The notes under the pieces were generated by a model. That model ran no database searches, was not told where the DNA came from, and saw only the letters and a program-made list of their open reading frames with translations. Of a DNA stretch of 36,927 nucleotides, positions 269-35,710 are shown in pieces. Source of the DNA: Spiroplasma sp. AdecLV25b (GTDB lineage Bacteria; Bacillota_I; Bacilli_A; Mycoplasmatales; VBWQ01). The stretch spans positions 1-36,927 of the forward strand of contig NZ_JAQYTS010000018.1 in NCBI RefSeq assembly GCF_030913225.1, read 5' to 3'. How positions within the stretch are numbered: the stretch's first letter is position 1; every line of letters starts with the position of its first letter. Position numbers and translations under genes: made by a program.

Positions 269-562
269 CGAATCAATATTAATAATATTAATGATGAACT
301 TGAACAACTTAATAAATTTAAAGTTACATCAAAAACTAGCATTGAACAATTAAAAAAACAAGTATTTATAATTAAAATGTTTATGGAAAATCAAATTTTC
401 CAACCTGATTTTAACGATTGCATTAATGAACACTATACGAATAGTTTTCAAAATAATTTAGCCAAAAGTATTAAAAAATTAAAACTTTATATTAATAATG
501 AAAAATTTCAAAATATAATGGGATATTATGATGAACTTTCTAACAGTAATATAAATAAATAA
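269..562 (+). pseudogene. Probable gene remnant, helical hypothetical protein
   Basis: A frame of about 97 codons is open from just after a TAA at 263-265 to TAA at 560-562. The first ATG in it (377) is 36 codons in and has no Shine-Dalgarno sequence before it. The upstream part (reading INNINDELEQLNKF) has the same Lys/Asn/Glu-rich helical character as the rest, so coding content seems to extend past the only start, which suggests a 5'-degraded gene. It has no membrane segment and no signal peptide. Its 3' end overlaps the 3' end of the convergent gene at 526-1482 by 37 bases. I do not recognise a family. It could instead be a genuine 61-aa protein starting at 377. Confidence 0.35.
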
Positions 563-1482
563 GCATCATTTGTTAGCATATTAGTATAAACTGTCGTGTT
601 ATTATTAAATGCTGTATATCCTCCATTCATTTGCAATGGTACTAGTTGTGGCGATGATTGATTTAAATCCAATAAATAACTAATACTTAAATCTTCATTT
701 TCATAACTAATTATTCCTTGTTGATCATTTAATCTTGTATAATCATTACCAATAATATCTAAAGCATTGTATTGCAAAGTTTTAAGATTGAAAATTGCTA
801 CTTGCTTAGTAGCCAAATTATTTACTAAAGCAAGATTATCATTAATTCGTCAATAAAAACCAGTTTTTCTCAGTTTGATTAAATTTTTAGTATCAAAATT
901 AAAAAGATAAGATTGAAGAGAAGCATCAAGAACAATAGCTTGTTGTTGATTAATTTTAGTAAACTTTAATCCTTGAAAATTTAAATCAATAAACTTTAAT
1001 GCCAAGGGGTTATTTGAATCTAATCAATAAGCTTCGCTTTTTTTACCAATGAAACAAATACCATTAGTATCATTAATAGCAAAATAACTAACAATTGGTT
1101 GGTTGATTAATGAAACTTGATGACCAATTGGTTGATTAAGATCTAATAAGAGAGGTTGGTCAGAAAAAGAAAATTGCTGTAAAATTGCCATATGATCATT
1201 AATAACAAAAGTATTAATAATTGGTGCTATTTCTAAATCAATAAATTGTGAACCAACTGCTTTGCTACTATCGAACAAATAAAGTTTAAACCCATTATCA
1301 ACAATTAAAGCTTGTTGTTGATTGATTTTTTTATAATCAAGAATTCTTTTATTTAAATTAATAAATTCATAACTGCTATCTTGTTTTAAGTTATTATTTT
1401 TTAGTTGATAATTAATTACAGTTGGTATTACTGAACTACTCAAAGCAGCAATAGTAATCACATTTAATATTTTTTTAAACAT
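526..1482 (-). CDS. Secreted or anchored protein with seven ~40-aa repeats, predicted beta-propeller
   Basis: This is a 318-aa protein with several TGA-coded tryptophans. Start: ATG at 1482, preceded by GGAGG 7-8 bases upstream; a GTG at 1497 lies inside that Shine-Dalgarno region and is less likely. Residues 1-24 form a basic-then-hydrophobic N-terminus (MFKKILN...) with no lipobox cysteine, so it is a Sec signal or uncleaved anchor. The rest falls into seven units of about 36-42 residues. Each has a core I-N-(D/Q)-x-x-A-(I/L) followed by a strand ending in LFD, LLD or a variant; the cores sit near residues 53, 94, 136, 177, 213, 251 and 292. Unit length and number are what a seven-bladed beta-propeller would give. 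Function is unknown; an extracellular binding or adhesion role is inference. It has its own promoter at 1562-1590. Confidence 0.75.
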
Positions 1483-1561
1483 ATGTTGTTCCTCCACTAA
1501 TTTATTTTATTATTTTAATAAGTAATCATTAAATTCCTTTCTTTTTATTTAATGTATTTTA

Positions 1562-1590
1562 ATTATAATTAATTTAGTTTTATTTTTCAA
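1562..1590 (-). promoter_or_regulatory. Sigma-A type promoter for the repeat protein
   Basis: On the minus strand, TTGAAA (1590-1585) and TATAAT (1567-1562) are separated by exactly 17 bases. Expected transcription start is near 1555, giving a leader of about 70 bases before the ATG at 1482. Confidence 0.65.
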
Positions 1591-1761: not shown

Positions 1762-3756
1762 CTAATTTAATAATGTAATAGATTTAAATTTAAAGTTACG
1801 CATACCTTGAAATGTACTTAAACTTTCAGTATCAATAAGACTAACTACAAAATGATAGGTAGTATTATTATCAGTATAAATAAAATCATAACTTAAATTA
1901 ATTGTTTGAATATTATCATCAGTTTTTTTATTTATGACAATATTAGTAATAGTATTAGTTTTTTCACTAAGATATTTAGTATAGTGTTCTTTAATTCAAT
2001 CATCATTTTGTTTAGTGATAATTGTTGCTAAACCTTTTTTATCATTATTGTCAATGATGATGTTAATAAGATTGGATAAGGGGCTAGTAGTATCATTAAT
2101 TTCTTTTTGTAAAACATTAATTGGTGAGTTAGGTTTAAAACCTTTATTAGAATCTGGCTGACAACCTAAAGCATAAAATAGTTTGCTAATGTCATTAGGA
2201 TTAATATTGTGATTAGGATCAACAATTTGTTTTAATGTTTCAATTGTTGTTTGTAAAATTACTAGTAATCCACTATTTTTGTCAGTTAAAAATTGTGTTA
2301 ATTTTGTTAAATTTATATCAATCATGTCATCTCCATGATATTGTTGTGAAACAGTAGCAATTAAATTAAATATAGTATCTAAAGTTGTAATAATAGTACT
2401 AGAATTTAACATAGTTGTAATTTTATCAATTAAAGGATTAATGTAAGTTTCAGGAATTATCTTTAATAATACGCCTAATGGTTGTTGCACATCACTTATT
2501 TTTACAATAATATCATAAGTAAAAGTATCGAAACTATTTTCTTTAATACCAAGCAGTTCTTTAATAGTATTTGCTAATTGTTTAGGGTTTTGAAATAACG
2601 TTTTAATAGTATTAATGACATCTAATAAATTAAAACTGCCACTGCTTGGATTGCTTGGTTTATCAGAAAATATTAAATGTTTAATTCCTAAATTAATATT
2701 AGGCATTGCTAAAAGTCATTTTTTAACAATCGGGATTACAGCTTCGATAATAGTAATTAAATATGTCGGGTTAGTTAATACATAATTTAAATATGGAGTA
2801 ATATCTTTTATTAATTGATCAGTATTTATACTTAATCCATCAATATTTTTACTAATAATTTCTCCTAAATATTTTCGTTCAACTTGCGGATTATCATTAC
2901 CTATTTGTCAAAATAAGTGATTAATTAAAATCCCACTGCGGTATAAACTATATGCCTCAGGAGTTCAATCTTGAACTTTATGACCTAGATTACTACTAAT
3001 ATTTCAACCACCATTTTGATTTCATTGGCTGTAAGGATTATTATCAACATCTTTTCAATTAGTCATAAAAGTAGTTAAACCACTAACATCATTAGGAACA
3101 CTGTGGTCTTGATTTCAATCACCAGTAGTTACATTACTTAATAATTGGGTAATAGCAGTTAAAAATTGATTGCTATAATAATTAAGTAAATTACTAACTA
3201 GTTTCATACTTGCTGTTGAATTTTTTAAATTATTTTGCAACGTAGTTAAAAACGTCATAATTGGTCCTTGTAAAATAGGACTGTTAATTAAACTATTCAA
3301 ATTACCATTACTAATAAGTCCAATCGTTTTAATTTCTTTAGCATAACCTAAGATATTATTAATATTTTTTTTGCTATTAATTGTCTTGGTTAATGTTCCA
3401 GTTCCTGAAGCAACAAAAAACTGATTAGGATCAAAACCGTTAATATCAATTTTTTCATTGACACCTCAGTTATTTGCTAAGTCACCTCAGTTATTTAAAG
3501 TTTTACCAGAAGTACCATTAACAATAGTATTATTTTTAGTTTGATTCATAATATCATCGTTAGTACTAATAGTATCGGCGTTTAAATCTTTAGACATAAC
3601 AAGACTTTTAATAATTGACGATGTTTCATTAGCAAATTCTTTAGCACTACCATTAATACTATGATTAACATAAAAGTTAAAACTACAAGCAATTAGTGGC
3701 ATACTACTGGTGCTTGCTATTAAAATAACACCTAGTTTAGTTAATAATTTTTTCAT
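1762..3756 (-). CDS. Large surface lipoprotein, 664 aa
   Basis: A single open frame with many TGA tryptophans runs from ATG at 3756 to TAG at 1762-1764. A strong Shine-Dalgarno (AAAGGAG) lies 8 bases upstream. The N-terminus is a lipoprotein signal: MKK, a hydrophobic stretch, then the lipobox LIAC with Cys24 as the predicted acylated residue. The mature part is long, Asn/Thr/Ile-rich and probably mostly helical, with no membrane segment, so it should be tethered on the outer face of the membrane. Size and layout resemble the large mollicute-specific lipoproteins sometimes called MOLPALP, but I cannot confirm membership by reading. It is divergent from the FtsX permease gene at 4034, sharing a 277-base intergenic region. 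Function unknown. Confidence 0.8.
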
Positions 3757-4033: not shown

Positions 4034-7000
4034 ATGCCAAGATTAAAGAAACGTAGTAGTAAAGTAGAATTAAAGACAACTGTTAGTAGTAAAAATAAGA
4101 AAAGAATTTTTAGGGGTGATACTTTACTATTAAAACAAACTTTAATAGCAACTTGAAAAAGCAAGCTACAATTAGTAATTTTGCTTTTATTAACTGCATT
4201 TGCTACTTCTTTAGTTACAGGTTGCTGAATTTCTTATGACCGAATGATTGATGGTAGCAAAGAAATGGGATTAGATGATCTTAAATTTGATGCTGTTTTA
4301 CCCTATTCACCAGTTCCCCAAGGAATTAAACAAATCGCTGATCAAGCTTTTAGTTTAAAATTGGGGCGTTTATATTATCAAGAAACAGGGAAGAGTACTA
4401 GTAAAGCCCTTTACTTTGATAATACTGTAATTGGTAGCAATCAACAAATTAACGCTATTACTGTCAATGATGTAATTGTTGATTTTAATCATGATGTGAC
4501 AGGAAAAATTACTGGTCTTAATAATTTTAACTGAGCTAATCCTACTAATCCATTAACATTTAATTTAAATAATTCTGAAGTGAAAGCCAGTATTTATGGT
4601 CAACTACAAGTTAAAGCGGTTGCCGCCACAACTTTAAGCCTAAAAAATCACTATTTACAAGCAGCATCAGACTTGTATCGTGATATTTTTATGCGTTTAT
4701 CAGTACCTAATATTACGACAGCCGTCTCAGATTTTATTAAAAGTTGAATTGTTCAAAATTCCACATCACCAGAATTGTCGAAACCAGATAGTGAGTTCAT
4801 TGAATGAATTTTAGAAAACAAAGTTAATTTTCAAAGTGATACTCCTGATTCTACTATTATTCCTGATGCAACTAATCTATTTGATGATAATGCTAGAAAT
4901 AGTTTATTCACTACTATTAAACAAGGAATAGGTTCAAATAAAAGTGATTTTGATAATAATACCGACCCTCGAGCTGCTACTACTGCTACCTTTGGTATGA
5001 ATGGTCACTATATGCGTATTGGTCGTACATTTGATAATGTTGCTACAAGTGATATTTATTCTAATCTTCATAATTATTTTTCTCCTGCTGGGTTTAATCA
5101 AATTGGAGATGGTCGCGAAACTGATGCTTATTCTTTTTATTTAGCACGTGCAGCAGCAGCTTTACAAGAACGTGATATTTATGTTCGTAATCAATTTAAC
5201 GCTATTGTCAAAACGGAAAATACTGTTCAAACTAATACCAAAGTTATTGATATCGGTATGCCTGGTGCCATTAATCATGCTAATTTAAAAATCTTTGAAG
5301 GAGTAGCTCCAACAAGTAGAAATGAAATTGCTATTACTCCACAATATGCACGAAAACTTCATTACAAACCAGGCGACAGTATTGTTATTAACAATAGTAG
5401 TTTTATAATTACCGGCATTGGTGGCGATGCTTATGATATTTATCCTACGATTAATGATTTAGACCCAGTTCCTAATACAAGAACAGAGTTTATTGCTTAT
5501 GCTCCACCAATAGCATGAAGTAATAGTGACTGATATCCTAGTAAAGAAAAAACTGATACAACTTTAATGTATTTTACACCGTGAAATGATCGAGATAATA
5601 AATCCGTATTTAACACTGATTACTTTGATGATTTTTTCCAAAAAACTATTTTCAGTGATAATGGCAATAGTGAACATAATCAGTTTGACTATAATAAGTA
5701 TTTAATTGATAAGTATACTGCTGGTAAATCACCCACAACTATCTATCATATTGTTCCTAATCCAGTTATTGCTAGCGATAATAGCCAGTTTTCTATTTAT
5801 AGTGGACGTAAGCAAATCTTTGAAAGTTCAGTAAAAGGTTTTTTATACGCTTCCATTATTGCTGTTTTATTTTTAGTGTCAATTGTTATTTTTATTACAA
5901 CATTAATTGTTAAAAAAGCTATTCAGCATGGGCAAGTATCAATGGGGATTTTAAAGTCTATTGGTTATAAAACTTGACAAATTACTCTTTCGTATTTATC
6001 ATATCCATTAATTGCTTTAGCAATTGCTATTCCTGTTGGTTGGATTGCTGGTTTAGTTGTCCAAGTTTATTTAACTGAAATTTTTAATACTTTATTTGTT
6101 TTACCTTATAATGTTTTTAATTTTAATGTGGCACCATTATTTGCTTCTATTGCCTTAATTATTGGTTTTATTGCCATTGCCACAGTATTAACCGCCTTTC
6201 GCGTTTTAAAGAAAGACCCATTATTATTAATTAAGAAAGATAGTGATTTAGCTCTTTCTAATAACACGAAAAAAAAGGCAAGTGGGTTTTTAAAAAATCA
6301 TTTTCGTTGACGTTTTTTATTATCTTTATCAAAAACTAGTTGAAAAAAAATTCTTGTGACCTCTAGTGTCATTAGTTTAGCTACTTTATCAATTGTAGCA
6401 ACAACTGCTATTCCTGCTACTATTTCTAGTTTAAAAACTAGTTATTTTAAAACACAAAAATATAAAAACTACTATGAATATCAAACTCCTATCCCTAATT
6501 TACCTGTAAGTAAATATGGTTTATATGCTTGAAACTTTTTTGATAAACCACAAGATGAACAATATTACCCTGTTTATGGAGCAATGCCATGACCAGAAGA
6601 TAAAATTATTTATGATAGTAATGATGGTAGTCGTGTTGGTTGATATGATCCTTTAAGTTTTAAAGCCAATGATCCAAATCAAGATTTTGTTCATATCTTT
6701 AACTTTGACCCCAATTATAATAAAGACAAAAATGTTTTTACAACTGCTATGACTAATTATTATAACGGTCTTGCAAATGGAACACTTAGCATTAATGATT
6801 TAGCTTGATCATATAGTTGATTAGGTGGTAAAGCTTTTAGTAATGAATTATTAACTGAATTAAGTAAAAGAGACCAAACACCTGGAAGCACCTTTTCTAG
6901 TTCGTTAGTTAATTTTGTAAGTACTGCTTTACCAACTATTATTGGCGTTTCTAACCCTGGAGTTGCTCCTGGTCCAGATGCTATTAAAGAAATTTTAAAA

Positions 7001-8743
7001 CAAACTTTACCTGGTTATGTTTGTCAAAGTTTAGATAGTTTACCTAAAATTGGCAATCAAGATCCATATGATTATTTTTCTATTGGTCACAATACAGTTG
7101 CCTTTAATCCTAACCATAGTAAAGAAAAAAATGCTCCAGATGGTCCAAGTGAAGAATTAGTAACGCAATTTAAAATTGGTTCTAATAATTCAGATTTAGC
7201 ATCAAAAGGATTAATGGATACCATTGGTATTAATCCTGATACCAAAATGATTGTCTTAAAAAATAATGAAGCTAACTTATTACATTACAGTAGTACTGCT
7301 ACTGTGATTCCGATGGTTATTAATAAAGCCTTTCAATCTAAATATGGTTTATCAGTAGGTTCAACATTTGATGGTGCTCCTGATATTAATACTTTATGTT
7401 ATAAAAATGAAAATGGCAAAATGATTCCATTACCAAAAGATAGTTGATATTATGGTGATAACCCTGAAAATGCTCCGGATAATGGTGGTATTTGGTCAAA
7501 AAATGGAACTAAATGAAATTATCGTGAAAACGAACAAATCGGAAATACAGGTTATACTGATATTCAAGGTTATGAATATGGTGGCATGTATGGCAGCAAT
7601 GGTAAACCTATTCTTGATGAAAATAATCCTAAAGCCTGAAATGATATGAACAAAGTATGATTAAAAGTACCTGATAAGATTGATAAAGGTGCGTTAAAGG
7701 GAACCATTAGAAAAGCTGATGGTAGTACTTTATTTCCCTTTGATATTAACAGTATTGCAAAAACAAAAGATAGTAAATGAATTAAACCTTTCTCATTTAG
7801 TTTATCTAATAGTCCAACACCAGAACCATCAAAACCCATTGATCCAGTAGGACTTTTAACTAATCGTAATCCAGAATGATTTATGGGAATGATTGATCGT
7901 GGTATCCTTGAAAAACAAAATACTTTAAGTGGTAAGGGTAATTTACAACAAGTTATTAAAGATATGCCACTATGATGACAAAATATTATTGGTGATGCTA
8001 ACCCTATTCATAGTTATCAAATTGTTGGAATTCAAGATTCTTATGATACACCAAAAGCTTATATTGACCAAAAATGAGCTAATCAAATTGTTGGCTATAG
8101 TGCTTATGATGATAATCCATACTATGATGGAACAACAGTTCCACAATGATTTAGCGGTAAACTAAGTGCCGATAATAATATCTTTGACTTGATTGGGCGG
8201 ATGAGTTTTAAACAAAACGTTGATGACTATAGCATTTATGGAACAGTTGGTCTAAATAATAACGGAACAGTTCCGTTAGTTGCCAATAATGACTTACTAT
8301 CAAGAAAACAAGCTATGCTTAATAAAATGTCTGACATTTCCTTTAGTGCTAGTGCATTATTTATTGTGACAACTATTATTTGTTCAATCTTAATTGTTAT
8401 TATGATTACAGATTTATTTACTGACCAATTCCGACGATTTATGGCTCACATGAAAGCAGAAGGATATACTAATCGTGAAATTAACTCCTTTACTTTAGGT
8501 ATTTTTACGCCATGAGCATTATTAGGATATTTAGCAGGATTTGCTATTGGTTTCTTAGTTGTATATGGTTTAGTAACAACTATTACTGCTGCTACTGCTT
8601 TGGCATTGCCATTTACTATTACGTGATGAATCTTGCCTGTATCATTTGTGGTAATTGGTGGCATTTATATCTCAACCTTTATTATTAACAATAGTGAATT
8701 AAATAAAATGAATTTAATTGAATTGTTGAAATCAGATGAATAA
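4034..8743 (+). CDS. Large FtsX/MacB-type ABC transporter permease, 1569 aa
   Basis: One frame with dozens of TGA tryptophans runs from ATG at 4034 (AAGGA 8-9 bases upstream) to TAA at 8741-8743. It consists of two permease halves in tandem. The first has a membrane segment near residues 44-65, an extracellular domain of about 530 residues, then an FtsX three-helix unit near 600-735 containing LKSIGYKTWQI. The second has a membrane segment near 775-795, an extracellular domain of about 640 residues, then three helices near 1435-1552 containing MKAEGYTNREI. The external parts show MacB core-like patterns, for example NEIAITPQYARKL followed by KPGDSI and a TGIGG strand. These proteins normally pair with a separate ATPase and act on lipoproteins or envelope substrates; none is nearby. 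The two external domains are much longer than in ordinary MacB or LolE. Substrate unknown. Confidence 0.85.
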
Positions 8744-21586: not shown

Positions 21587-24500
21587 ATGATTAAAATTAA
21601 ATTGTTATTTAAAAATAACTTTAAAAATACAACCAAAAATAAAATTCAACTAGTTAGTTTAGTTATTTTAGTTTTTTTATCTTCACTAGTTTTTAGTATT
21701 ATTGAAACTTCTAAAACGCGTGTTACTAATAGTTATAATGATTTTATTGCTGCTGAGCAAAGTAATCAACACGATTTTATTGTTGATTTTTCTAACACTA
21801 GTTATGTTGTTGATGGGAAAGATAACTTTACTAATGTCAGTAATTTAGAAGAACGTCAAAATGCCGTGCTTGATGATATTAATCAAAAATTAAAAACAAA
21901 TAATGCCATAGATAGTTTTACTTATGGCCGAGTAGAAGCAAGAACTTTTTATGCTGGTAATAATAATCAAAAAATTTTAAAAGCTGTTACTTTAAATCCA
22001 GAACAACAAACTGATAAGTTTATTGTGACGCAAGGCATGCCTTTAAGTTTATGAAGTAAGTACCAACAAGCTGTTAATCGTTATTCAGAACGATGAGTTT
22101 ATTTGAATTCTAAATTTGCTGCTAATAATAACATTAAGATTAATGATATTATTAGGTTACAAAGTGATAATTATGGTCATGCCATTCTAGTTAAAAATGA
22201 TCTCGATATTAGTAAATATCAAAAACAAGATATTAATCAATGATTACCTAATTCCCCTTATGCCAGTGCTAATTGATTTCGTGTTGTTGGATTTGGCGCT
22301 TCAGCTGATTTAATAACACCAATTATTGATGCTACTCATCCGATTCCTGATATGAAAAATCAAGGTTTAGTTTATCTTGATCCAATTTTGTTTGGATTAG
22401 AACAAAAAACTATTACTTTACCTGATAATTCTAAAGTTAATATTATTAGCACTAATCCTAATCAACAATTAGTAACATCAAGTTCTAGTGATCGTGAAGT
22501 TTATTATGTTGGTAAGTTTTACGATAATAAAAATCCAGTAGTAACAAGTACTAGAATTAATCAATTTCTTAATTCAAATGTTGAAATTGACAAAATTAAA
22601 TTAGGTTCACATTTTGTGAAAATTGGTGACGCTAATCATCCTTTAGCGACATATAAAGATGATCATAAATATTCTTTAGCAAGTCGAATTACCTTTTTAG
22701 AAACAACTTTAAAAACTTTTTCTTTAGGTTCATATTTAATTATTAGTACAACTTTATTATTATCAGTTTTTGCTTTAGTGCTGGTATTAAAAAAACAAAT
22801 TGAAAATACAAGAATTCAAAATGGGATTTTAAGAAGTCTTGGTTATCATAAACATAATATTATTTTAAGTTATTTTAGTTATCCGTTAATGATTGCTTTA
22901 ATTGGAGGAATTAGTGGGTATGTAATTGGTTTAGCATCACAGCAGTTTGTTATGATGTTCTTTCAAAATTATTTTAATTTTGTTTTTCAACCATTTGCCT
23001 TTACTATAACTTCGCTAATGGTTTGTGTTTTTGCTATCTTTATTTTATTAAGTTTAGTTACTACGATTACTTGTGCGATCATGATGTTGAAAAATCCAGT
23101 AGTAATGATTAATGGTGATATGATTAATGCTACCTTTATGATTAAACAAAAAATTAAAAAGAAAATAACTTTTAAAAATAATTTTAATAGTCGTTTTAAA
23201 GCTGCTTTATTTAGTAATTCAATTGGAAAAATGACAGGAGTATCATTAACAATGATTGTTGTTACTGCTTTAATAGCAGCAACCACCACGATTCCCATGA
23301 TTTTACAAGATAATTTGAAATATTCATATATAGGTGATAATTATCAAACCAAGATTGAATATTATAATCCTACCTATAATATTCCAACTAGCTTTTATAA
23401 AACCTATGATCCATCACAACCAGCATGAACTACTAATGATAATAGTTATTATATGCACTTTGCAGATGGTAATACCAACATGATTGATAATTTAGATCAA
23501 TTAATGAATCAATATCAAACAGGAAAAATTAATAGTGAAACTTACAGTCCCACTTTTAATGCTACTGATTTAACTAGTCTATTATATAAAAACATTAGCA
23601 AACAATATTTAACAAGTAATAAAATTACGATTCCCCAAACATCACAAATCCTAACACCAATCATTATTAGTAGCATTTGAAGTGATTATCATAGCATGGG
23701 TTTAGATAATTTTAATAATAAATCATCAGTTGAAACAATTGTTGGAACTTATCCAGATGCTCAAAAAAATGTTAAACAATTAGATTTATTAAGAAGTTTT
23801 TATTTAAAATATCGTACTACTATTGGTTTAGACCTCCAAAATCCAAAGTACTTCTCTTCTGATAAAAGTGCCATTAAAATTAATGATAATCCTGATGATT
23901 TTTTTACAAGTCTTGAATATCTTAATAAAGGTATTCTACCTGGTAATGATTTAACAGATGGTCATTTAACAGATGAAAAAAATGTTTATACACCTTTTAG
24001 CCAAATTGTTAATGACCCAGTTACTGGTTATGATACAGTAGAAAGGTTAACATATGATATTTATAATTGATACAAGGCTTATTTCATTAATAATATTGAA
24101 CAAGGATTTATGCAAGGGATTTACAGCCAAGCCCCCGACAGTTTACGAGCAACAATTGCGCAGAATTTTAAAAATCCCAATGCTAATTACAATATTTTAT
24201 TTGGTGTTGTTCCTTATAATCCTGTTAACGATGATTTAGGCACTTACTTTAATGCTAGTTATAGTAACCAAAATTTTAAAGTTTACGGTATTAAACAAAA
24301 TAGTAAAACTCAAAAATTAACTAACAATAGTAGTGATGACTTATTATTACAACTATATAATAGTGATGATAATGGCATTATTCTTAATGCTAGTTTAGCC
24401 AAATTATTAAATGTTGCCGTTGGTCAAACGATTACTTTAAACCAATCGCGTAATGTTTTAAAACAAAACAATCAAATAATTAATCCAAATAGCTGGGATA

Positions 24501-25687
24501 CGAGAGAATTAAGTGCAAGTGACCCGCTAGGTAATGATAGTTACACTAATAGTAAATACTTATATAGCACTTTATCAGGGAGTCATCTTAACGATAATGT
24601 CAATTGAATTAATAAAGATATTGTTAATAATAATCAAGATTTTGTTTTAAAATCAAATATTAATCCAACTAATCCAACTCCAGTAACAGCTACTTCAGTA
24701 GAAAAAGATGCTTCATCAGGTTCTTTAATCATTAATAGTGAAAAAGTACTTGCTAATAGCACTTATGTTGTGAAAGGAATTACTAATCAGTATGGTGATA
24801 ATAAAGCTTGAGTTAAAGAAACACAAGCAGAAAAAGTAGCAGGTTATAACGAAATTAAACCTACTTTATTTCAAATATTCTTAAAAGAATGAACTAAACC
24901 ATACGATGTTAATGCTTCACAAACCGTCAAATCTCAAGTCCAAGTTTTAAATAGTAGTGGTTTTGCAACTAATAATCTAGTTGATTATCAAGCAAAATAT
25001 AATGATTTCATAAGTAAATCAGTTAATGATCCCATTATTAACATATGACAACAAATCTTTAATAACGAATATCCTGTTTTTAATTATAAATTATCACAAT
25101 CTAATGTCATTGATGATTTAACTAATGGTATTAGTACTAGTCAAGTTTATGGTGATTACTCAGTTAATGGTTTAGTTGGTGGCAGTGATATTAGTGGTAA
25201 CCAATATAATGCTTATAAAATTAGTAGTGTTAATAATTTATTACCCATCACAACAGCACAAGGAATCTTACAACATATTTATCAAATTATTAATACTATC
25301 TTATTTGTTGCAATTATTATTGCTTGTTTGCTTGCTTTATTAATAATTATTTTAACAAGTAATGTCATTATTGCTGAGAATTTAAAAGTTATTTCCACAA
25401 TGAAAGTTTTAGGATATAGTAATAAATCTATTACTAAATTAGTATTAGGAATTTACTTTCCAATTGTTGTTTTAACAACCATTATTGGTTTTCTTTTCGG
25501 ATGAGGTTTATTATTATTTGGTACCAGTTTCTTATTGCATCATGCTATTGTTATTCCTTTAATTATGAAATGGTGATTACCACTTATTTCTATTGTTATT
25601 AGTTATTTATTATATTCTTTAGCTTATTTAATGAGTTGAAAAATTATGACTAAAGTTAATAGTTTAGACGTTATTACTGCGATTTAA
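21587..25687 (+). CDS. Large FtsX/MacB-type ABC transporter permease, 1366 aa
   Basis: The frame runs from ATG 21587 (AGGGAG 7 bases upstream) to TAA 25685-25687 through many TGA tryptophans. It has the same two-half architecture as the permease at 4034. The first half has a membrane segment near residues 22-42, an extracellular domain to about 375, then an FtsX helix unit near 376-508 with LRSLGYHKHNI. The second half has a membrane segment near 548-572, an extracellular domain of about 650 residues, then a second FtsX unit near 1228-1364 with MKVLGYSNKSI. External parts contain MacB-like strands (WVYLNSKFAANNNIKIND, FRVVGFGA, GIILNASLAKLLNVAVGQTI). The first external domain is about 200 residues shorter than in the other permease. 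No ATPase is nearby. Two lipoprotein genes follow directly, so lipoprotein export or surface processing is a plausible but unproven role. Confidence 0.85.
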
Positions 25688-28256: not shown

Positions 28257-28282
28257 ATAACTATAAAATCTAAACAATCTTT

Positions 28283-28350
28283 TACCCTTATAAGCTAGTA
28301 ATATGGACTATTGTATCTACGTTTAACCAAAAATTTAAACACTATGGGTT
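28283..28350 (+). ncRNA. Purine (guanine-class) riboswitch aptamer
   Basis: All conserved parts of the purine aptamer are in order. P1 is ACCC (28284-28287) with GGGT (28346-28349). J1/2 contains TATAA. P2 is TAGT/ACTA around the L2 loop AATATGG. J2/3 is TATCTAC (28314-28320). P3 is GTTTAA/TTAAAC with loop CCAAAAAT. J3/1 is ACTATG. GG of L2 and CC of L3 can make the loop-loop kiss. The specificity base in J3/1 is C (28342), which pairs with guanine or hypoxanthine and not adenine. J2/3 has the ordinary U and not the 2'-deoxyguanosine variant known from Mesoplasma. The gene behind it is a guanine/hypoxanthine-type permease. Confidence 0.85.
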
Positions 28351-28418
28351 TATTTATGAATTTTTTTCATAAATAAAAATCAACATTACTTCTGAGGAAA
28401 TGTTGATTTTTATTTTTT
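28349..28418 (+). terminator. Expression platform: hairpin plus terminator of the riboswitch
   Basis: A first hairpin (12-bp stem at 28349-28360 and 28366-28377, loop TTTTT) starts at the 3' strand of P1. A second stem (AAAATCAACATT region 28376-28387, complement 28399-28410) is followed by TTATTTTTTAT and is a proper intrinsic terminator, 20 bases before the start codon. This is the layout of a purine OFF switch by early termination. Confidence 0.7.
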
Positions 28419-28438: not shown

Positions 28439-29836
28439 ATGTTTTATAAAAAACAAATTAGTAAATTTTTTAAATTTGATAGTGTTAATGCTACTTTTAA
28501 AAAAGAAATTATTGGTGGTTTAACAACCTTTTTAGCGATGGTCTATATTTTATCAGTACAACCAAGTATTCTTTCACAATCGCCAAGTATTAATCCAGCT
28601 AATGGAAACATGAACTTTGGTGGTATCTTTATTGCCACGGCAATTGCTCCCTTTGTTGGAACAGTCATTATGGGACTATCTGCTAATTTGCCTGTTGGAT
28701 TAGCACCAAGCATGGGTTTAAATGCCGTGTTTACCTTTAATGTTGCCAAAAACGGCATTGGCTATGAAGGTGCTTTAATTGCCGTAATGATTTCTGCACT
28801 TTTATTTTGTTTAGTATCAGCTACTAAAATTAGAATATTAATTATGCAATCAATACCACAATCAATGAAACTAGCAATTGGTACTGGAATTGGTTTTTTT
28901 ATTGCTTACATTGGTTTTAAGGATATTGGTTTAGTAAGTGCTAGTGATAGTGGTTTGCCAATTGCTTCACTGTCACAGTTAAAAAACACTTGGCCATTAA
29001 TATTAATAGGAGTTGCTATTTTAAGTTTAATTTTTATTTTGTATTTTAAAAAAATACCTGGTGCGATTGCGATTGCCATCCTATGTGGGTTAGTAATATC
29101 TTTAATCATTGGTAATGTTGGGAAAAGTGAGTTTATTAAAGCAAACTTTGCCCATTGAACAAATTGAAGTTATAGTGATTTTAGTTCATGAAAAATTAAT
29201 TTTAGTAATACTTATCATGCTATTAGTAATCCTAAAATTTGAACTTCACCAACCATGTATATTGCTATATTTGTGTTTTTATTCGTATCTTTTTTTGATA
29301 CTACCGGTACTTTATATTCAATTTCTCATCAAATTAGTGACCAAACTGGTATTAATTATCAATTAAAGAAAAATGCTTTAATGGCTGATTCTTTTGGTAC
29401 ACTTACTGGTAGTTTAATTGGTTGTTCGCCAATTACTACTTATGTAGAGTCATCAACTGGTGTTGCACAAGGAGCAAGAACTGGTTTTTCATCATTAATA
29501 ATAGCAATCATGTTTTTAGTGGCTATTGTTTTATATCCATTATTTAAATTGATTACACCTTGTATATCTGGTTCTTGTTTAATTTTTGTTGGTAGTTTAA
29601 TGATAAAACAATTAAAAGATATTGAATGAGTAATTCCTGAAATTAGTATTGCTGCTTTTTTCACAATTATTACGATGATTATCACTTATTCAATTACTAA
29701 TGGGATTGCGATTGGTTATTTGGCCTATACTTTAACAGCATTAGTTAATAAGAAATATAAGGATGTTCACATCATTACTTATATGCTTGATGTTTTATTT
29801 ATTGGTTATTTTGCTGCTTATGCTTTTGTACAGTAG
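28439..29836 (+). CDS. NCS2-family guanine/hypoxanthine permease (AzgA/PbuG-like)
   Basis: The 465-aa protein starts with a short cytoplasmic end and then the signature of the AzgA branch, KKEIIGGLTTFLAMVYILSV, followed by NFGGIFIATAIAPFVGTVIM and the GLAPSMGLNAVFTF substrate region. Later parts include FVSFFDTTGTL and the second half-site CSPITTYVESSTGVAQGARTG. About 12-14 membrane segments are expected. The protein imports guanine or hypoxanthine with protons; mollicutes depend on purine salvage. AGGAGG lies 8 bases before ATG. Control by the upstream guanine-class riboswitch fits the specificity of this branch and argues against a uracil or xanthine carrier. Confidence 0.92.
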
Positions 29837-30989: not shown

Positions 30990-31034
30990 ACGTTTATATA
31001 ATAATTAAAGTTCAAAGCTTAGGTGAATGTATAT

Positions 31035-32009
31035 ATGTGACAAAAACGAATCTTAGGTTCATTATGAATTATGACAATGCTTATTATTTTTATTGTCACA
31101 TTTGTTAATAATAAACCTTATTTTATTATGGGTGGTTCAACTTCTGTTTCACCATTAATGCACACTTTAATGGATGGTTATCCAGAAAATCATAAAGATG
31201 CTGATTTTACATATAATAGTTTGGGTTCTGATGCAGCTATTATTCCCGTTGATAAAGGCATGTTTGGTATTGGATGATTATCAAAAGAATATACTACTAG
31301 TAATCCAAACCAGATTAGTTTTGTATTGTCACTTGATGGGATGATTTTAGTTTATAATTTACCACCATCTGAACTGGGGAATGATAATCCATTGAACTTT
31401 AACCAAGAAATTGTTAAAAAAATGTATTTAACAAATGGTAATGTTTATTGAAAAGATTTATTTCCCCAAGACCCTGCTCATCCAAATGAAGGATGGGTTA
31501 AGCCAACTTCAACTTTAAAAGTTACAACTTATACGCGCGAAAATGGTTCGGGAACCCGTGATGTTTTTAATGAAAAAGTATTAGGTGATAAAACAGCATA
31601 TTATCCGCAAGCCACAACTGTCAATTCAAGTACCCAAATGTTTAGTATGGCACCTGGTGGTATTGGTTATAGTTCTTATTCTGACAAAAAACAGTTAGAT
31701 AGTAATCCTTCGTTTGCTAATGTTTATATGGGTAATTGAGAACATACTATTCCAACACTAGATAATATTAGTCACAAAAGATATGGATTAGCACGACCCT
31801 TTACTGGAGTAATTAATGAAAAATATAAACAAATCAATACATTAGTTAAATTTTTAAAGTTCTTGTTTTACCCATCTGATCCCAATCATCATATTGTTGA
31901 TGCTGCTTTTAGTGAAGCTAACTATGCCCAAGCAGCAGTACCATTAGATGATCCTAGTGGTGTGAATAATAAATTAGATACATGATTAAAGAAGTTTCCA
32001 GAGGTATAG
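31035..32009 (+). CDS. pstS: Phosphate ABC transporter substrate-binding protein PstS
   Basis: The 324-aa extracellular binding protein has the PstS start FIMGGSTSVSPLM (phosphate loop) and the second loop YTRENGSGTRDVFN near residues 165-178, followed by APGGIGYSSYSD. It captures phosphate for PstCA. Unlike most Gram-positive PstS proteins it has no lipobox: the N-terminus is a hydrophobic segment (about residues 9-26) with no Cys, so it is probably held by an uncleaved anchor. ATG 31035 follows TTAGGTGA; its second codon is TGA (Trp). It ends three bases before pstCA, so it heads a tightly packed pst operon. Confidence 0.93.
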
Positions 32010-32012
32010 TCA

Positions 32013-34061
32013 ATGAAACCCAAGTCTTTTCAAAACTTTTGACACAAAATAACATTCAATCGTTTTAATAAAAATTATGAAGTAAAAAATGTTGTCATTA
32101 GTGAACAAAAAAAACATATTCAAGATTTAATTGTTAAAATTACGATTTTAGGTTTATCATCATTAGCTTTAATTGCTCTGGCTTTATTAATTGGTTTTGT
32201 TGTTGGTCAAACATTTAGCGATATGAGTTTTTTAACTTGATTAAAAATGTTGGGCAGCAGCAAATGGTTACCTAGCGGCAATAGTTTTGGTGTAATTGCC
32301 TTTGTGGTCGCAACATTTTGAGTAGCATTAATTTCGATGTTAATTGCTGTACCATTAAGTTTATTAACATCATTATTTATTTGTGAGTTTTTACCACGAC
32401 GACTAAAAAAGGTAACTTTAACATTAGTTGAGTTATTATCAGGTATTCCTTCTGTTGTCTTTGGTGCGTTTGGATTAATGACCATTGGTCCCATTTTTGT
32501 CAAAATGGGTGCTCCCACTAAAGAAAATATGATGACTGCTAGTTTTATCTTATCAATGATGGCACTACCAACTATTATTTCTTTATCTGTGAATGCGATT
32601 AATAGTGTTCCTAAGTCGTATCGTTACGCATCATTAGCTTTAGGTATTAGTCATACTCATACTAGTTTTAAAGTTGTTTTTAAAGCAGCACTTCCGAAAA
32701 TTATTGGAGCAGTTATCTTTGGTTTTGGGCGCGTAATTGGTGAAACGATGGCTGTTGTTATGATTGCTGGTAATAGTACTTTAGTTCCTAATTTTAAAGA
32801 TGGTCCTTTAGGATTTATTTTCAGTTCCGTCTCCACATTAGCAGGGGTAATCGGACTAGAAATTGGTGAAGCTGTTAGTTCTCAACAAATATCAGCATTA
32901 TATGGCATTGGTTTATTTTTATTTATTATCGTTTCAGTTATTAATGTAGTAGTATTATTAATTTATAAACGTACAGAAAAGAAATTAAAAGGTCATCATA
33001 AACCACGTAACTATTATTTAAAAACTTTAAAGTTATCTAATCAACAAATGACTAATAGCATTCATGAAAAGAGTATTAAAAATCGTCAGTGAAAACAGTT
33101 TAAAGATTATGTTCGACTTTTTTTCATGAGTATTTCTTGTTTTATTACTATGGGTTTAATTGTTTGAATTATTGGTGATATTATTATTAATGGGATATTT
33201 AATATTAGTGGTACTGCTGGTAGTGGTGCTTTCAATTTTAATTTTCTGGCATTATTCCAAACAACGGGTGATGAGGGATATTTATCAATTGTCGCTATGA
33301 CGTGCTTATTAGTCTTAACAGCAATTACCATTGCCATGCCATTGGGCATTATTGGTGCCATTTACTTACATGAATATGCTAAAGATAATAAATTTGGAGG
33401 GATTTTACGATTTGTTTTAAACACTTTAGCATCAACGCCATCCATTATTTTTGGAATGTTTGGTTTTAGTTTATTTATTGTTTTTTTAGGAATGAGTTTT
33501 AGTGCCATTACGGCAGGTTTAACGTTGACAATTGTTGTATTACCACTTATTATTAGAGCAGTAGAAGATACGCTAAAATCAGTACCTGTGGAATATCGTG
33601 AAGCTTCATTAGCATTAGGTGCTAGTAAGTTTGAAACCATTAGAAAAGTAGTAATTCCGAATGCGATTGGTGGGATTGTTACGAGTATGATTTTATCAAT
33701 GGGAAGAATTGTTGGAGAATCAGCACCAGTATATTTAACATTAGGAAGTACAGTTGGATTTCCTAACAAAGGATTTCTAAGTTCGGGTCAAACTTTAACG
33801 ACTCATATTTTACTAATTAATAAAGAATCAAATGACCCTAATAAACTAGGAATGATGTACCAAACTGCGTTAATAACGGTGGCCTTAATATTTATTTTAA
33901 ATTTCTTAGCAAAACATTTTGAAAAAAGTTTAACAACAGGAGTGGGGGTGAAAACAAAATGTTCGATGGAACTAATCAAGGAAAAAATAACAGCAATGAA
34001 GAACAAACACCACAACAAACGTCAGACCAAAAAACAACTCAAAAGTGAAATGAAAAAGTAA
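32013..34061 (+). CDS. pstCA: Fused phosphate ABC transporter permease PstC-PstA
   Basis: The 682-aa protein joins both Pst permeases in one chain. The PstC half covers about residues 1-330, with the EAA loop YRYASLALGISHTHT near 202. A basic linker of about 40 residues follows. The PstA half covers about 365-650, with the EAA loop YREASLALGASKFET near 527. Each half has six predicted helices and forms the phosphate channel with two PstB subunits. A fused permease is also known in Mycoplasma (M. genitalium MG411 is of similar size). AGAGG lies before ATG 32013. The last 103 bases overlap pstB in another frame; the encoded tail is very basic ([21 protein letters not shown]-like). Confidence 0.93.
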
Positions 34062-34975
34062 TTGTTAAAATTAAAAACTGATTTAAAAAAATTAAAAACA
34101 TCTTTAAACAACAAAACCTAATGCCAGTAGTTATTGAACAACCACCAATAGTTACTAATAGTGCCATCATAAAAACTAAATCTTCAATCAAAAAAGAAAA
34201 AGAACTATTGCCAGAAAGTTATGTTTTTAATATCAACAATTTAAATTTCTTCTATAATAATGGTCAAAAACAAGCGTTATTTAACATTAATTTAAATATC
34301 ATTCGTCACCAAGTTACAGCCTTTATTGGACCAAGTGGTTGTGGAAAATCAACATTACTACGAACATTAAATCGGATGAATGATTTAATTGATGGTATTA
34401 AAATTAATGGTGAAGTTATCTTTAATAACCAAAACATTTATGAAAATAAAAAAAATATTATTTTATTACGCACTAAAGTCGGAATGGTTTTTCAAAAACC
34501 AAATCCTTTTCCAATGTCAATTTATGATAATATTGCGTATGGTCCTAGAAACCAAGGTATTAGAAATAAGAAAATCTTAAATCAAATTGTTGAGGACTCA
34601 TTAAAAAAAGCAGCCTTATGAGATGAAGTAGCCAAGAATTTATATGACTCAGCGTTATCATTATCAGGTGGTCAACAACAGCGTTTATGTATTGCTCGTG
34701 CTATTGCTCTAAAACCTGAGGTGTTACTAATGGATGAACCAACCTCGGCGCTAGATCCCATTGCCGCTGCTAAAATTGAAGATTTAATGAATGATTTAAA
34801 AAATGATTTTACTATTATTATTGTTACCCATTCCATGCAGCAAGCAGCACGGATTTCTGACAAGACTGCTTTCTTTTTAAACGGTGAAGTAATAGAATAT
34901 AATGATACAAAAAAAATCTTTTCACGTCCTAAAGATAAAAGAACTGAGGATTATATTACTGGTAGATTTGGTTAA
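33959..34975 (+). CDS. pstB: Phosphate ABC transporter ATP-binding protein PstB, N-terminally extended
   Basis: The 338-aa protein has a complete ABC ATPase from about residue 87. Walker A is GPSGCGKST (124-132), the Q-loop is [11 protein letters not shown], the signature is LSGGQQQR, Walker B is [11 protein letters not shown], and the switch His lies in [10 protein letters not shown]. Typical PstB is about 250 aa; the additional 85 residues are Gln/Asn/Lys-rich. ATG 33959 is chosen because AGGAGTGGGGGTG lies just before it, while the later ATG at 34121 has no Shine-Dalgarno. This start puts the first 34 codons inside pstCA in a different frame. It energises phosphate import in the membrane complex and lies upstream of phoU. 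Confidence 0.93.
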
Positions 34976-35017
34976 AACAAACTATAATTAAATTGTGTAT
35001 TGCAAAGGGGGAAAATA

Positions 35018-35710
35018 ATGAATATTATTAATCGACGATTTGATTTAGATATTGAAAATTTAAAACAAAATTTATTAAGTTTATTAACAGAAGTTAAAAA
35101 AGAGCATGAAGATGCCCTTGTGGCTATGGAAAATAGTGATTATGATTTTTCTAAAAAAATCATTCAAACTGACAAAGAAATTAGAAATATTGCTGAAAGT
35201 TTAACGATTACTGCTGTGTGAAATATTGCTCAACAAAATCCTTTTGCTCGTGATTTAAGAACTATTATTGGATATATGAATATCATTCGCGATTTAGAAC
35301 GTATCTCTAACTATGCGAAAAATATATCGGTTTTTAATGTTAAATATCGACCTGAAACAAAGTTAACTTCACAATTAGCGGGATTGATGAAAAAAACCTT
35401 TACGATGATGGATTTAATTGCGCAAGCGATTGATACGAATGATATTAAAAAAGCATATGAAGCAGCTGAGTTTGATGCATATATTGATGTTCATTTTCGT
35501 GAATCAATAAACAATATTGTTAGTATGTTTAAAAAAAATAAAAATGAAGAACAGTTTTCGCAATATACATCAGCTATGCAACAACTAAAGTATATTGAAC
35601 GGCTAGGTGACCATTTAGTTAATATTTGCGAAACTATTGTTTATATTATTAAAGGTAAATTTTATGATTTATCAACAACTTTATATGTGCCACCTGTTAA
35701 AAAGGGATAG
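35018..35710 (+). CDS. phoU: Phosphate transport regulator PhoU
   Basis: The 230-aa all-helical protein has two PhoU three-helix repeats. The first carries NPFARDLRTIIGYMNIIRDLERISNYA and the second QLKYIERLGDHLVNICETIVY; the E/D-x-x-R-x-x-D/N metal-binding pattern is visible in both. PhoU restrains the Pst transporter and phosphate signalling. No PhoR/PhoB pair is visible here, so it probably acts on the transporter itself. ATG 35018 follows AAAGGGGG by 6 bases; an in-frame upstream ATG (35000) lies before the Shine-Dalgarno and is rejected. It is the last gene of the pst operon, 42 bases after pstB. Confidence 0.93.

What the first reader, a model, noticed from the sequence alone, without database searches (positions are those of the whole stretch)
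526..1482. Secreted protein made of seven degenerate ~40-residue repeats, predicted seven-bladed propeller
The core I/L/F-N-(D/Q/N) recurs at residues 53, 94, 136, 177, 213, 251 and 292, with spacings of 41, 42, 41, 36, 38 and 41. Each core is followed by a hydrophobic strand and an LFD/LLD-like end. Seven units of this size after a secretion signal fit a beta-propeller, possibly a surface binding protein. Two units are nearly alike (INQQQALIVDNG and INQQQAIVLDAS), which suggests recent duplication.
Basis: partly seen in the sequence, partly recalled or inferred. Interest (0 to 1): 0.6.

Follow-up and report, generated by a model that had tools for sequence, protein, structure and literature searches.

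The report
Spiroplasma surface beta-propeller, adhesin-head relative
This is an exported protein of a Spiroplasma-type bacterium made of seven repeats that fold into a propeller-shaped binding module, and the same kind of module sits at the tip of adhesin-like proteins on Spiroplasma plasmids, so it probably binds something outside the cell, although no binding has been measured.

Summary
The ORF is on the minus strand (1482 to 526, genetic code 4, 318 aa), has an export signal, and consists of seven 37-43-residue repeats. The repeats far exceed chance. AlphaFold2 gives an all-beta repeat fold (pLDDT 78.6, pTM 0.72) and every listed solved-structure match is a beta-propeller. A closed seven-blade ring is not shown: the best matches are eight-bladed and the N-terminal strand is unpaired in the model. 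"Recent duplication" is not supported (71% DNA identity).

New here: the repeats belong to a family without a Pfam entry, found only in Spiroplasma-type bacteria in what was searched (core LSDTTGIF...yFFD...GFTdL). Members have 7 to about 10 units; the nine-unit homologue is predicted as a nine-bladed propeller (Z about 20 to eIF2A/eIF3b). Several copies are broken or decayed. The same repeats form the N-terminal head of an adhesion-related-protein (ARP)-like protein on a plasmid-like contig of this genome and on Drosophila-symbiont plasmids. The classical sarpin heads of ARPs are a different, Reg_prop-type propeller.

Best reading: a free-standing propeller head that binds host or surface ligands. 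Fold and kinship are well supported; function is inferred.

The parts
526..1482 (-). CDS, 318 aa, exported beta-propeller repeat protein (P0001), code 4
1408..1482 (-). N-terminal export signal (hydrophobic residues about 5-25, no lipobox Cys)
   Evidence: boundary is inference
1246..1365 (-). repeat unit 1 (residues 40-79)
1117..1245 (-). repeat unit 2 (residues 80-122)
   Evidence: unit not picked up by the external HMM
994..1116 (-). repeat unit 3 (residues 123-163)
883..993 (-). repeat unit 4 (residues 164-200)
772..882 (-). repeat unit 5 (residues 201-237)
646..771 (-). repeat unit 6 (residues 238-279)
529..645 (-). repeat unit 7 (residues 280-318), lacks the trailing linker as the last unit does in the intact stand-alone members
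1491..1495 (-). Shine-Dalgarno-like GGAGG
   Evidence: sequence
1562..1590 (-). promoter-like TTGAAA-17-TATAAT (11 of 12); such matches are common in this AT-rich DNA
1762..3756 (-). upstream neighbour, 664-aa lipoprotein; a second copy in this genome (contig C23) has a decayed single unit of the same repeat just upstream

Best explanation
P0001 is an exported seven-unit beta-propeller of a Spiroplasma-specific repeat family, acting as a free-standing binding module at or outside the cell surface. Shown by sequence: export signal, seven repeats, kinship with 8-10-unit lipoproteins and secreted proteins, and kinship with the N-terminal head of ARP-like, membrane-anchored plasmid proteins. Predicted: each unit forms one four-stranded blade, as in the confidently modelled nine-unit homologue. 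Inferred: the propeller face binds a host or surface ligand, as the repeat domain of the S. citri adhesin ScARP3d does (PMC3485318), although that domain is a different propeller type. The head is kept near the wall-less cell either by an uncleaved signal or by partners, or it is released.
For: Repeats. Fold: P0001 model pLDDT 78.6, pTM 0.72; the 50 listed Foldseek PDB hits are propeller proteins (E 1.9e-8 and up, prob 1.00); VIA Z 16.1, 265 residues, rmsd 3.4. Nine-unit homologue: pLDDT 82.7, pTM 0.80, Z 20-22 to nine-bladed eIF2A and eIF3b and to a centriole A-C linker protein. Family: unit HMM hits C35 (92 bits), G016 (77), G028 (274), sAtri7 (38), sAtri4 (23.5). P0001 units versus C35 units: hhalign 93%, E 3e-7, with sarpin-type and PQQ-type units as negative controls at about 0%. 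C35 has signal, eight units, a central region, a TM segment and a Lys/Arg-rich tail, next to Rep, VirB4/TraE-like, TraG-like and ParA genes. Its C-terminal half matches that of annotated Spiroplasma plasmid adhesins (hhalign 95.6%, E 1.1e-8). ScARP3d's repeat domain alone mediates bead adhesion and uptake by insect cells (PMC3485318).
Against: No binding data. P0001 is the most divergent member (14.4 bits). Its TM-scores to single propellers are modest (about 0.40-0.59), its ring closure is not shown, and it lacks the ARP stalk and any lipobox. Several relatives are broken or decayed, so it could be a paralogue on its way out. hhalign E-values on doubled unit alignments are inflated. Each model had only three sequences.
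Confidence: 0.6

Rival explanations
1. It is a decaying paralogue: an intact-looking but functionless remnant of a birth-and-death family.
For: Copies on C36, C21 and C23 of this genome and in G004 are broken, truncated or single-unit remnants. P0001 departs from the LSDTTG consensus. At the matching place in G004, next to the same FtsX permease and lipoprotein, no copy was found. The gene lies 526 bp from the contig end.
Against: The 954-nt frame is intact with a good Shine-Dalgarno site, an export signal and all seven units in register; neutral decay of a gene this divergent would be expected to break the frame.
Confidence: 0.2
2. It is a propeller with a housekeeping role, for example an extracytoplasmic scaffold or folding factor (BamB-like), or a ligand-sensing partner of the neighbouring lipoprotein and FtsX-like permease.
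For: BamB is among the structural matches (4imm Z 12.0). The neighbours are a lipoprotein and a large FtsX-like permease.
Against: There is no outer membrane in Mollicutes. PQQ/BamB-type units do not match P0001 units. The family is patchy: absent from G001-G003, G005 and G006, while the neighbouring lipoprotein has matches in all nine genomes.
Confidence: 0.12
3. The repeats form an open, curved beta array rather than a closed ring.
For: Unit number varies from 7 to about 10 among relatives (and 2 in a remnant). P0001's model matches eight-bladed rings with about one blade missing, and its N-terminal strand is unpaired.
Against: The intact stand-alone members start with the FTxL-like strand and end after the yFEYK-like strand, the arrangement expected if the N-terminal strand completes the last blade. 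The nine-unit member superposes on whole nine-bladed rings.
Confidence: 0.2
4. It is a sarpin-repeat (ScARP-type) adhesin.
For: Repeat length and number fit the published sarpin domain (6-8 repeats of 39-42 aa; PMC2386487), as does the genus.
Against: The sarpin repeats of a 66%-identical ScARP homologue match Pfam Reg_prop and do not match P0001 units (hhalign about 0%). P0001 lacks the conserved region, TM segment and charged tail.
Confidence: 0.05

Closest known systems
Spiroplasma adhesion-related proteins (SARP1/ScARPs) with sarpin repeats
   Same: Exported, surface-type Spiroplasma proteins with 6-8 repeats of about 40 residues that form a propeller-type head; the C35 relative also shares the membrane-anchored C-terminal half
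   Different: Sarpin repeats are Reg_prop-type and unrelated to P0001 units at profile level; P0001 has no stalk, TM segment or charged tail and is not on a plasmid-like contig
Plasmid proteins of the Drosophila atripex Spiroplasma (CP117532, CP117535; annotated hypothetical) and own-genome contig C35
   Same: Same repeat type
   Different: Repeats are fused to an ARP-like stalk, TM segment and Lys/Arg-rich tail
Uncharacterised proteins of Spiroplasma sp. JKS002669 (L023) and MAG A83_bin3_2 (L024)
   Same: Stand-alone, signal plus repeats only, same unit
   Different: Nine units, closer to the consensus; the JKS002669 protein is predicted nine-bladed
[quoted passage not shown] Nebria riversi symbiont; PMC12453411)
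   Same: Exported propeller proteins of Spiroplasma with unknown function
   Different: Different repeat family; hhalign about 0%
RCC1-like propeller proteins of Hepatoplasmataceae (PMC10928387)
   Same: Mollicute-symbiont propeller predicted by ColabFold and suspected in host interaction
   Different: RCC1-like and multi-domain with Ig-like folds; no sequence comparison made here

Membership tests
Beta-propeller fold | Tandem units of about 40 residues, four antiparallel strands each | tested here: met
   Units of 37-43 aa; about four strands per unit in the models
Beta-propeller fold | Fold resembles solved propellers | tested here: met
   listed PDB hits are propellers; Z 16 for P0001, 20-22 for its homologue
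Beta-propeller fold | Closed ring | tested here: inconclusive
   P0001 best matches are eight-bladed and its N-terminal strand is unpaired; the homologue covers whole nine-bladed rings
SDTTG-type repeat family (unnamed, defined here) | Unit HMM or profile from other members matches | tested here: met
   14.4 bits versus at most 8.2 in 2000 shuffles; hhalign 97.6%, E 3.8e-12
Sarpin/ScARP adhesins | 6-8 repeats of 39-42 aa after a signal peptide | tested here: met
   Seven units of 37-43 aa; definition from PMC2386487
Sarpin/ScARP adhesins | Sarpin (Reg_prop-like) repeat sequence | tested here: not met
   hhalign about 0% against units of ScARP homologues; the main one is 66% identical to an S. 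citri ARP record and matches Reg_prop. S. citri sequences themselves were not fetched
Sarpin/ScARP adhesins | Conserved region, TM helix, charged tail after the repeats | tested here: not met
   Protein ends with unit 7
Spiroplasma lipoproteins | Lipobox cysteine | tested here: not met
   Only Cys is residue 143; relatives on C36, C21 and G028 do have ...AC
PQQ/BamB-type propellers | PQQ-type repeat sequence | tested here: not met
   No Pfam hit; hhalign about 0% to PQQ-like units
Adhesin (function) | Binds host cells or surface ligand | not testable with these tools
   Inference from head sharing with ARP-like proteins only

The most novel reading that the evidence does not exclude
Spiroplasma adhesion-related proteins are modular: one membrane-anchored stalk carries interchangeable propeller heads of unrelated repeat families (Reg_prop/sarpin or SDTTG-type), and some lineages also export the SDTTG-type head alone, with blade number changing by amplification and loss, as a variable set of binding modules.
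Probability: 0.35. Interest if true: 0.55.

Novelty: new variant of a known kind. Interest (0 to 1): 0.4.

Why it matters
Surface binding proteins decide which hosts and tissues Spiroplasma colonises, and in the papers found only the sarpin-type heads have been studied. A second, unrelated propeller-head family, found both free-standing and fused to ARP-like stalks, gives defined domains to test for binding and a likely system of head exchange and blade-number change. It also suggests that the long-known sarpin repeats are themselves Reg_prop propeller blades, which the ScARP paper only hinted at through a COG3292 match.

Tried and rejected
Pfam, NCBIfam and PDB sequence searches with P0001: nothing significant. 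First genome-contig scan with P0001 alone: no relatives; the alignment query found two. Viral contigs and phages: none. tblastn of P0002 and of the G016 protein against plasmids: none. P0001's E 0.8 hit in CP117535 looked like chance at first, but this plasmid proved to carry an ARP-like protein with the same repeats. A Pfam 'Fascin' hit on the G028 relative (E 1.3e-6 with no stretch passing by itself) raised a beta-trefoil reading; it was rejected because the nine-unit model is one propeller and seven units do not make whole trefoils. A multi-register window alignment for folding failed because MAFFT put overlapping fragments in one register. Laying the whole genome in the script box was not available. 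A G004 match beside another lipoprotein (E 0.05) is only a signal peptide. Pediococcus and Carnobacterium glycoside-hydrolase hits (E 0.03 and 0.9) were not pursued.

Full report
THE GENE. The finding's coordinates hold a gene on the minus strand, which the finding did not state. Under table 11 the plus strand is full of stops; under code 4 the minus strand is open for 318 residues with TGA read as Trp twice. The genome is a code-4 draft of 965 kb whose relatives include named Spiroplasma genomes, so it is a Spiroplasma-type mollicute. ATG at 1482 follows GGAGG (1491-1495). The N-terminus is hydrophobic and lacks a lipobox cysteine, so the protein is very likely exported, but whether the signal is cleaved is open.

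THE REPEATS ARE REAL. The best internal alignment scores 98 against a shuffle maximum of 62 of 300; unit against unit gives z 12.7, with 0 of 1000 shuffles reaching it. Independently, an HMM made only from units of other proteins scores P0001 at 14.4 bits (E 1.2e-6), the best of 2000 shuffles being 8.2. Units start at residues 40, 80, 123, 164, 201, 238 and 280. The stated cores are exact, but the bare motif also occurs three more times. The two most similar stretches are 71% identical in DNA over 56 nt, so a recent duplication is not supported.

THE FAMILY. Relatives were found by protein and profile searches. Intact stand-alone members: Spiroplasma sp. JKS002669 (L023, 420 aa, nine units), MAG A83_bin3_2 (L024, 419 aa, nine units), and G028 in another family (427 aa, about ten units, several nearly identical in sequence, which suggests recent blade amplification). 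G016, whose second contig matches the coordinates of a Nebria riversi symbiont plasmid, has a 470-aa protein with about nine 'WYLDFSNPKNPIWTDLGK' units. In the own genome, copies on C36 (frame broken), C21 (two units) and C23 (one unit) are decayed, and in G004 several are broken. Four other same-genus genomes have none. Beyond these Spiroplasma-type genomes, wider searches of the order and phylum gave only weak matches or none. No Pfam family fits.

THE FOLD. The nine-unit homologue models well from three sequences (pLDDT 82.7, pTM 0.80) and superposes on nine-bladed propellers: eIF2A Z 20.6, eIF3b Z 20.0-20.2, rmsd 3.4-3.8, 327-338 residues. P0001 models less well (78.6, 0.72), but the 50 Foldseek rows listed are propeller proteins. 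With VIA-align it fits eight-bladed dipeptidyl-peptidase propellers best (Z 16.1, rmsd 3.2-3.4, 265-271 residues). The N-terminal strand that should complete the last blade is unpaired in the P0001 model and is a strand in the homologue's. So: propeller yes, seven blades by sequence, closed ring not shown. Sequence order (first strand FTxL-like, last strand yFEYK-like) is what ring closure by the N-terminal strand would require; that is inference.

LINK TO ADHESINS. Contig C35 of the same genome (12.9 kb) carries a replication gene, ParA, VirB4/TraE-like and TraG-like genes (named from their translations), and a 724-aa protein with a signal, eight units of this repeat, a central region, a TM segment and a Lys/Arg-rich tail. 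The unit HMM scores it 92 bits, and P0001's own units match its units at hhalign 93%, E 3e-7. Homologues lie on plasmids of the Drosophila atripex symbiont. The C-terminal half of these proteins matches that of annotated Spiroplasma plasmid adhesins (hhalign 95.6%, E 1.1e-8). This is the layout published for ScARPs (PMC2386487). The head, however, is different: a ScARP homologue from a Nesidiocoris symbiont, 66% identical to an S. citri 'adhesion related protein' record, has Reg_prop repeats (Pfam E 1.1e-10), and these do not match P0001 units at all (about 0%), whereas they do match PQQ-like units (85%) in the same kind of comparison. The E-values of these doubled-unit comparisons are inflated; the contrast between positives and negatives is what counts.

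MECHANISM. Shown: export signal by sequence, seven-unit array, propeller prediction, shared ancestry with ARP-like heads. Inferred: the propeller binds a ligand on host cells or matrix. The best support is by analogy: the repeat domain of ScARP3d alone makes beads adhere to and enter leafhopper cells (PMC3485318). The patchy occurrence, varying unit number and broken copies fit a fast-changing surface repertoire better than a housekeeping role.

NOVELTY. The fold and the idea of propeller-headed Spiroplasma surface proteins are known. A propeller-repeat family without a Pfam entry, shared between stand-alone exported proteins and ARP-like stalks, was not found described in the papers searched. 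I file it as a new variant of a known kind.

Noticed in passing
window 28266-28364 (+): Purine riboswitch (Rfam RF00167, 49.8 bits) ahead of a membrane-transporter ORF at 28439-29836, an ordinary arrangement.
   Followed up: no
window 31023-35710 (+): Phosphate-uptake (Pst) operon as read from the translations: substrate-binding protein, a 682-aa fused permease, ATPase and a PhoU-like protein.
   Followed up: no
window 4034-8743 and 21587-25687 (+): Two very large FtsX-like permeases (1569 and 1366 aa), each next to lipoprotein genes; Pfam FtsX was confirmed for the first only.
   Followed up: no
L084:1250-1370 (+), own-genome contig C23: Decayed single repeat unit (QQYINLNKKGAVFQLNDQQGIFVQPTADIWLLNL) just upstream of a second copy of the 1762-3756 lipoprotein.
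   Followed up: partly
L068:8884-11286 (-) and L065:6478-8145 (+): ScARP-type adhesins whose sarpin repeats score above the Pfam cut-off for Reg_prop, so sarpin repeats are very likely propeller blades.
   Followed up: partly
L026:1273-2553 (-): Nearly identical neighbouring units in the G028 relative, a sign of recent blade amplification.
   Followed up: no
L002 1100-2260 (-) and G004 copies: Frame breaks in this family, one of them near an A-rich stretch by the start codon of the C36 copy; phase variation, decay and assembly error were not told apart.
   Followed up: no
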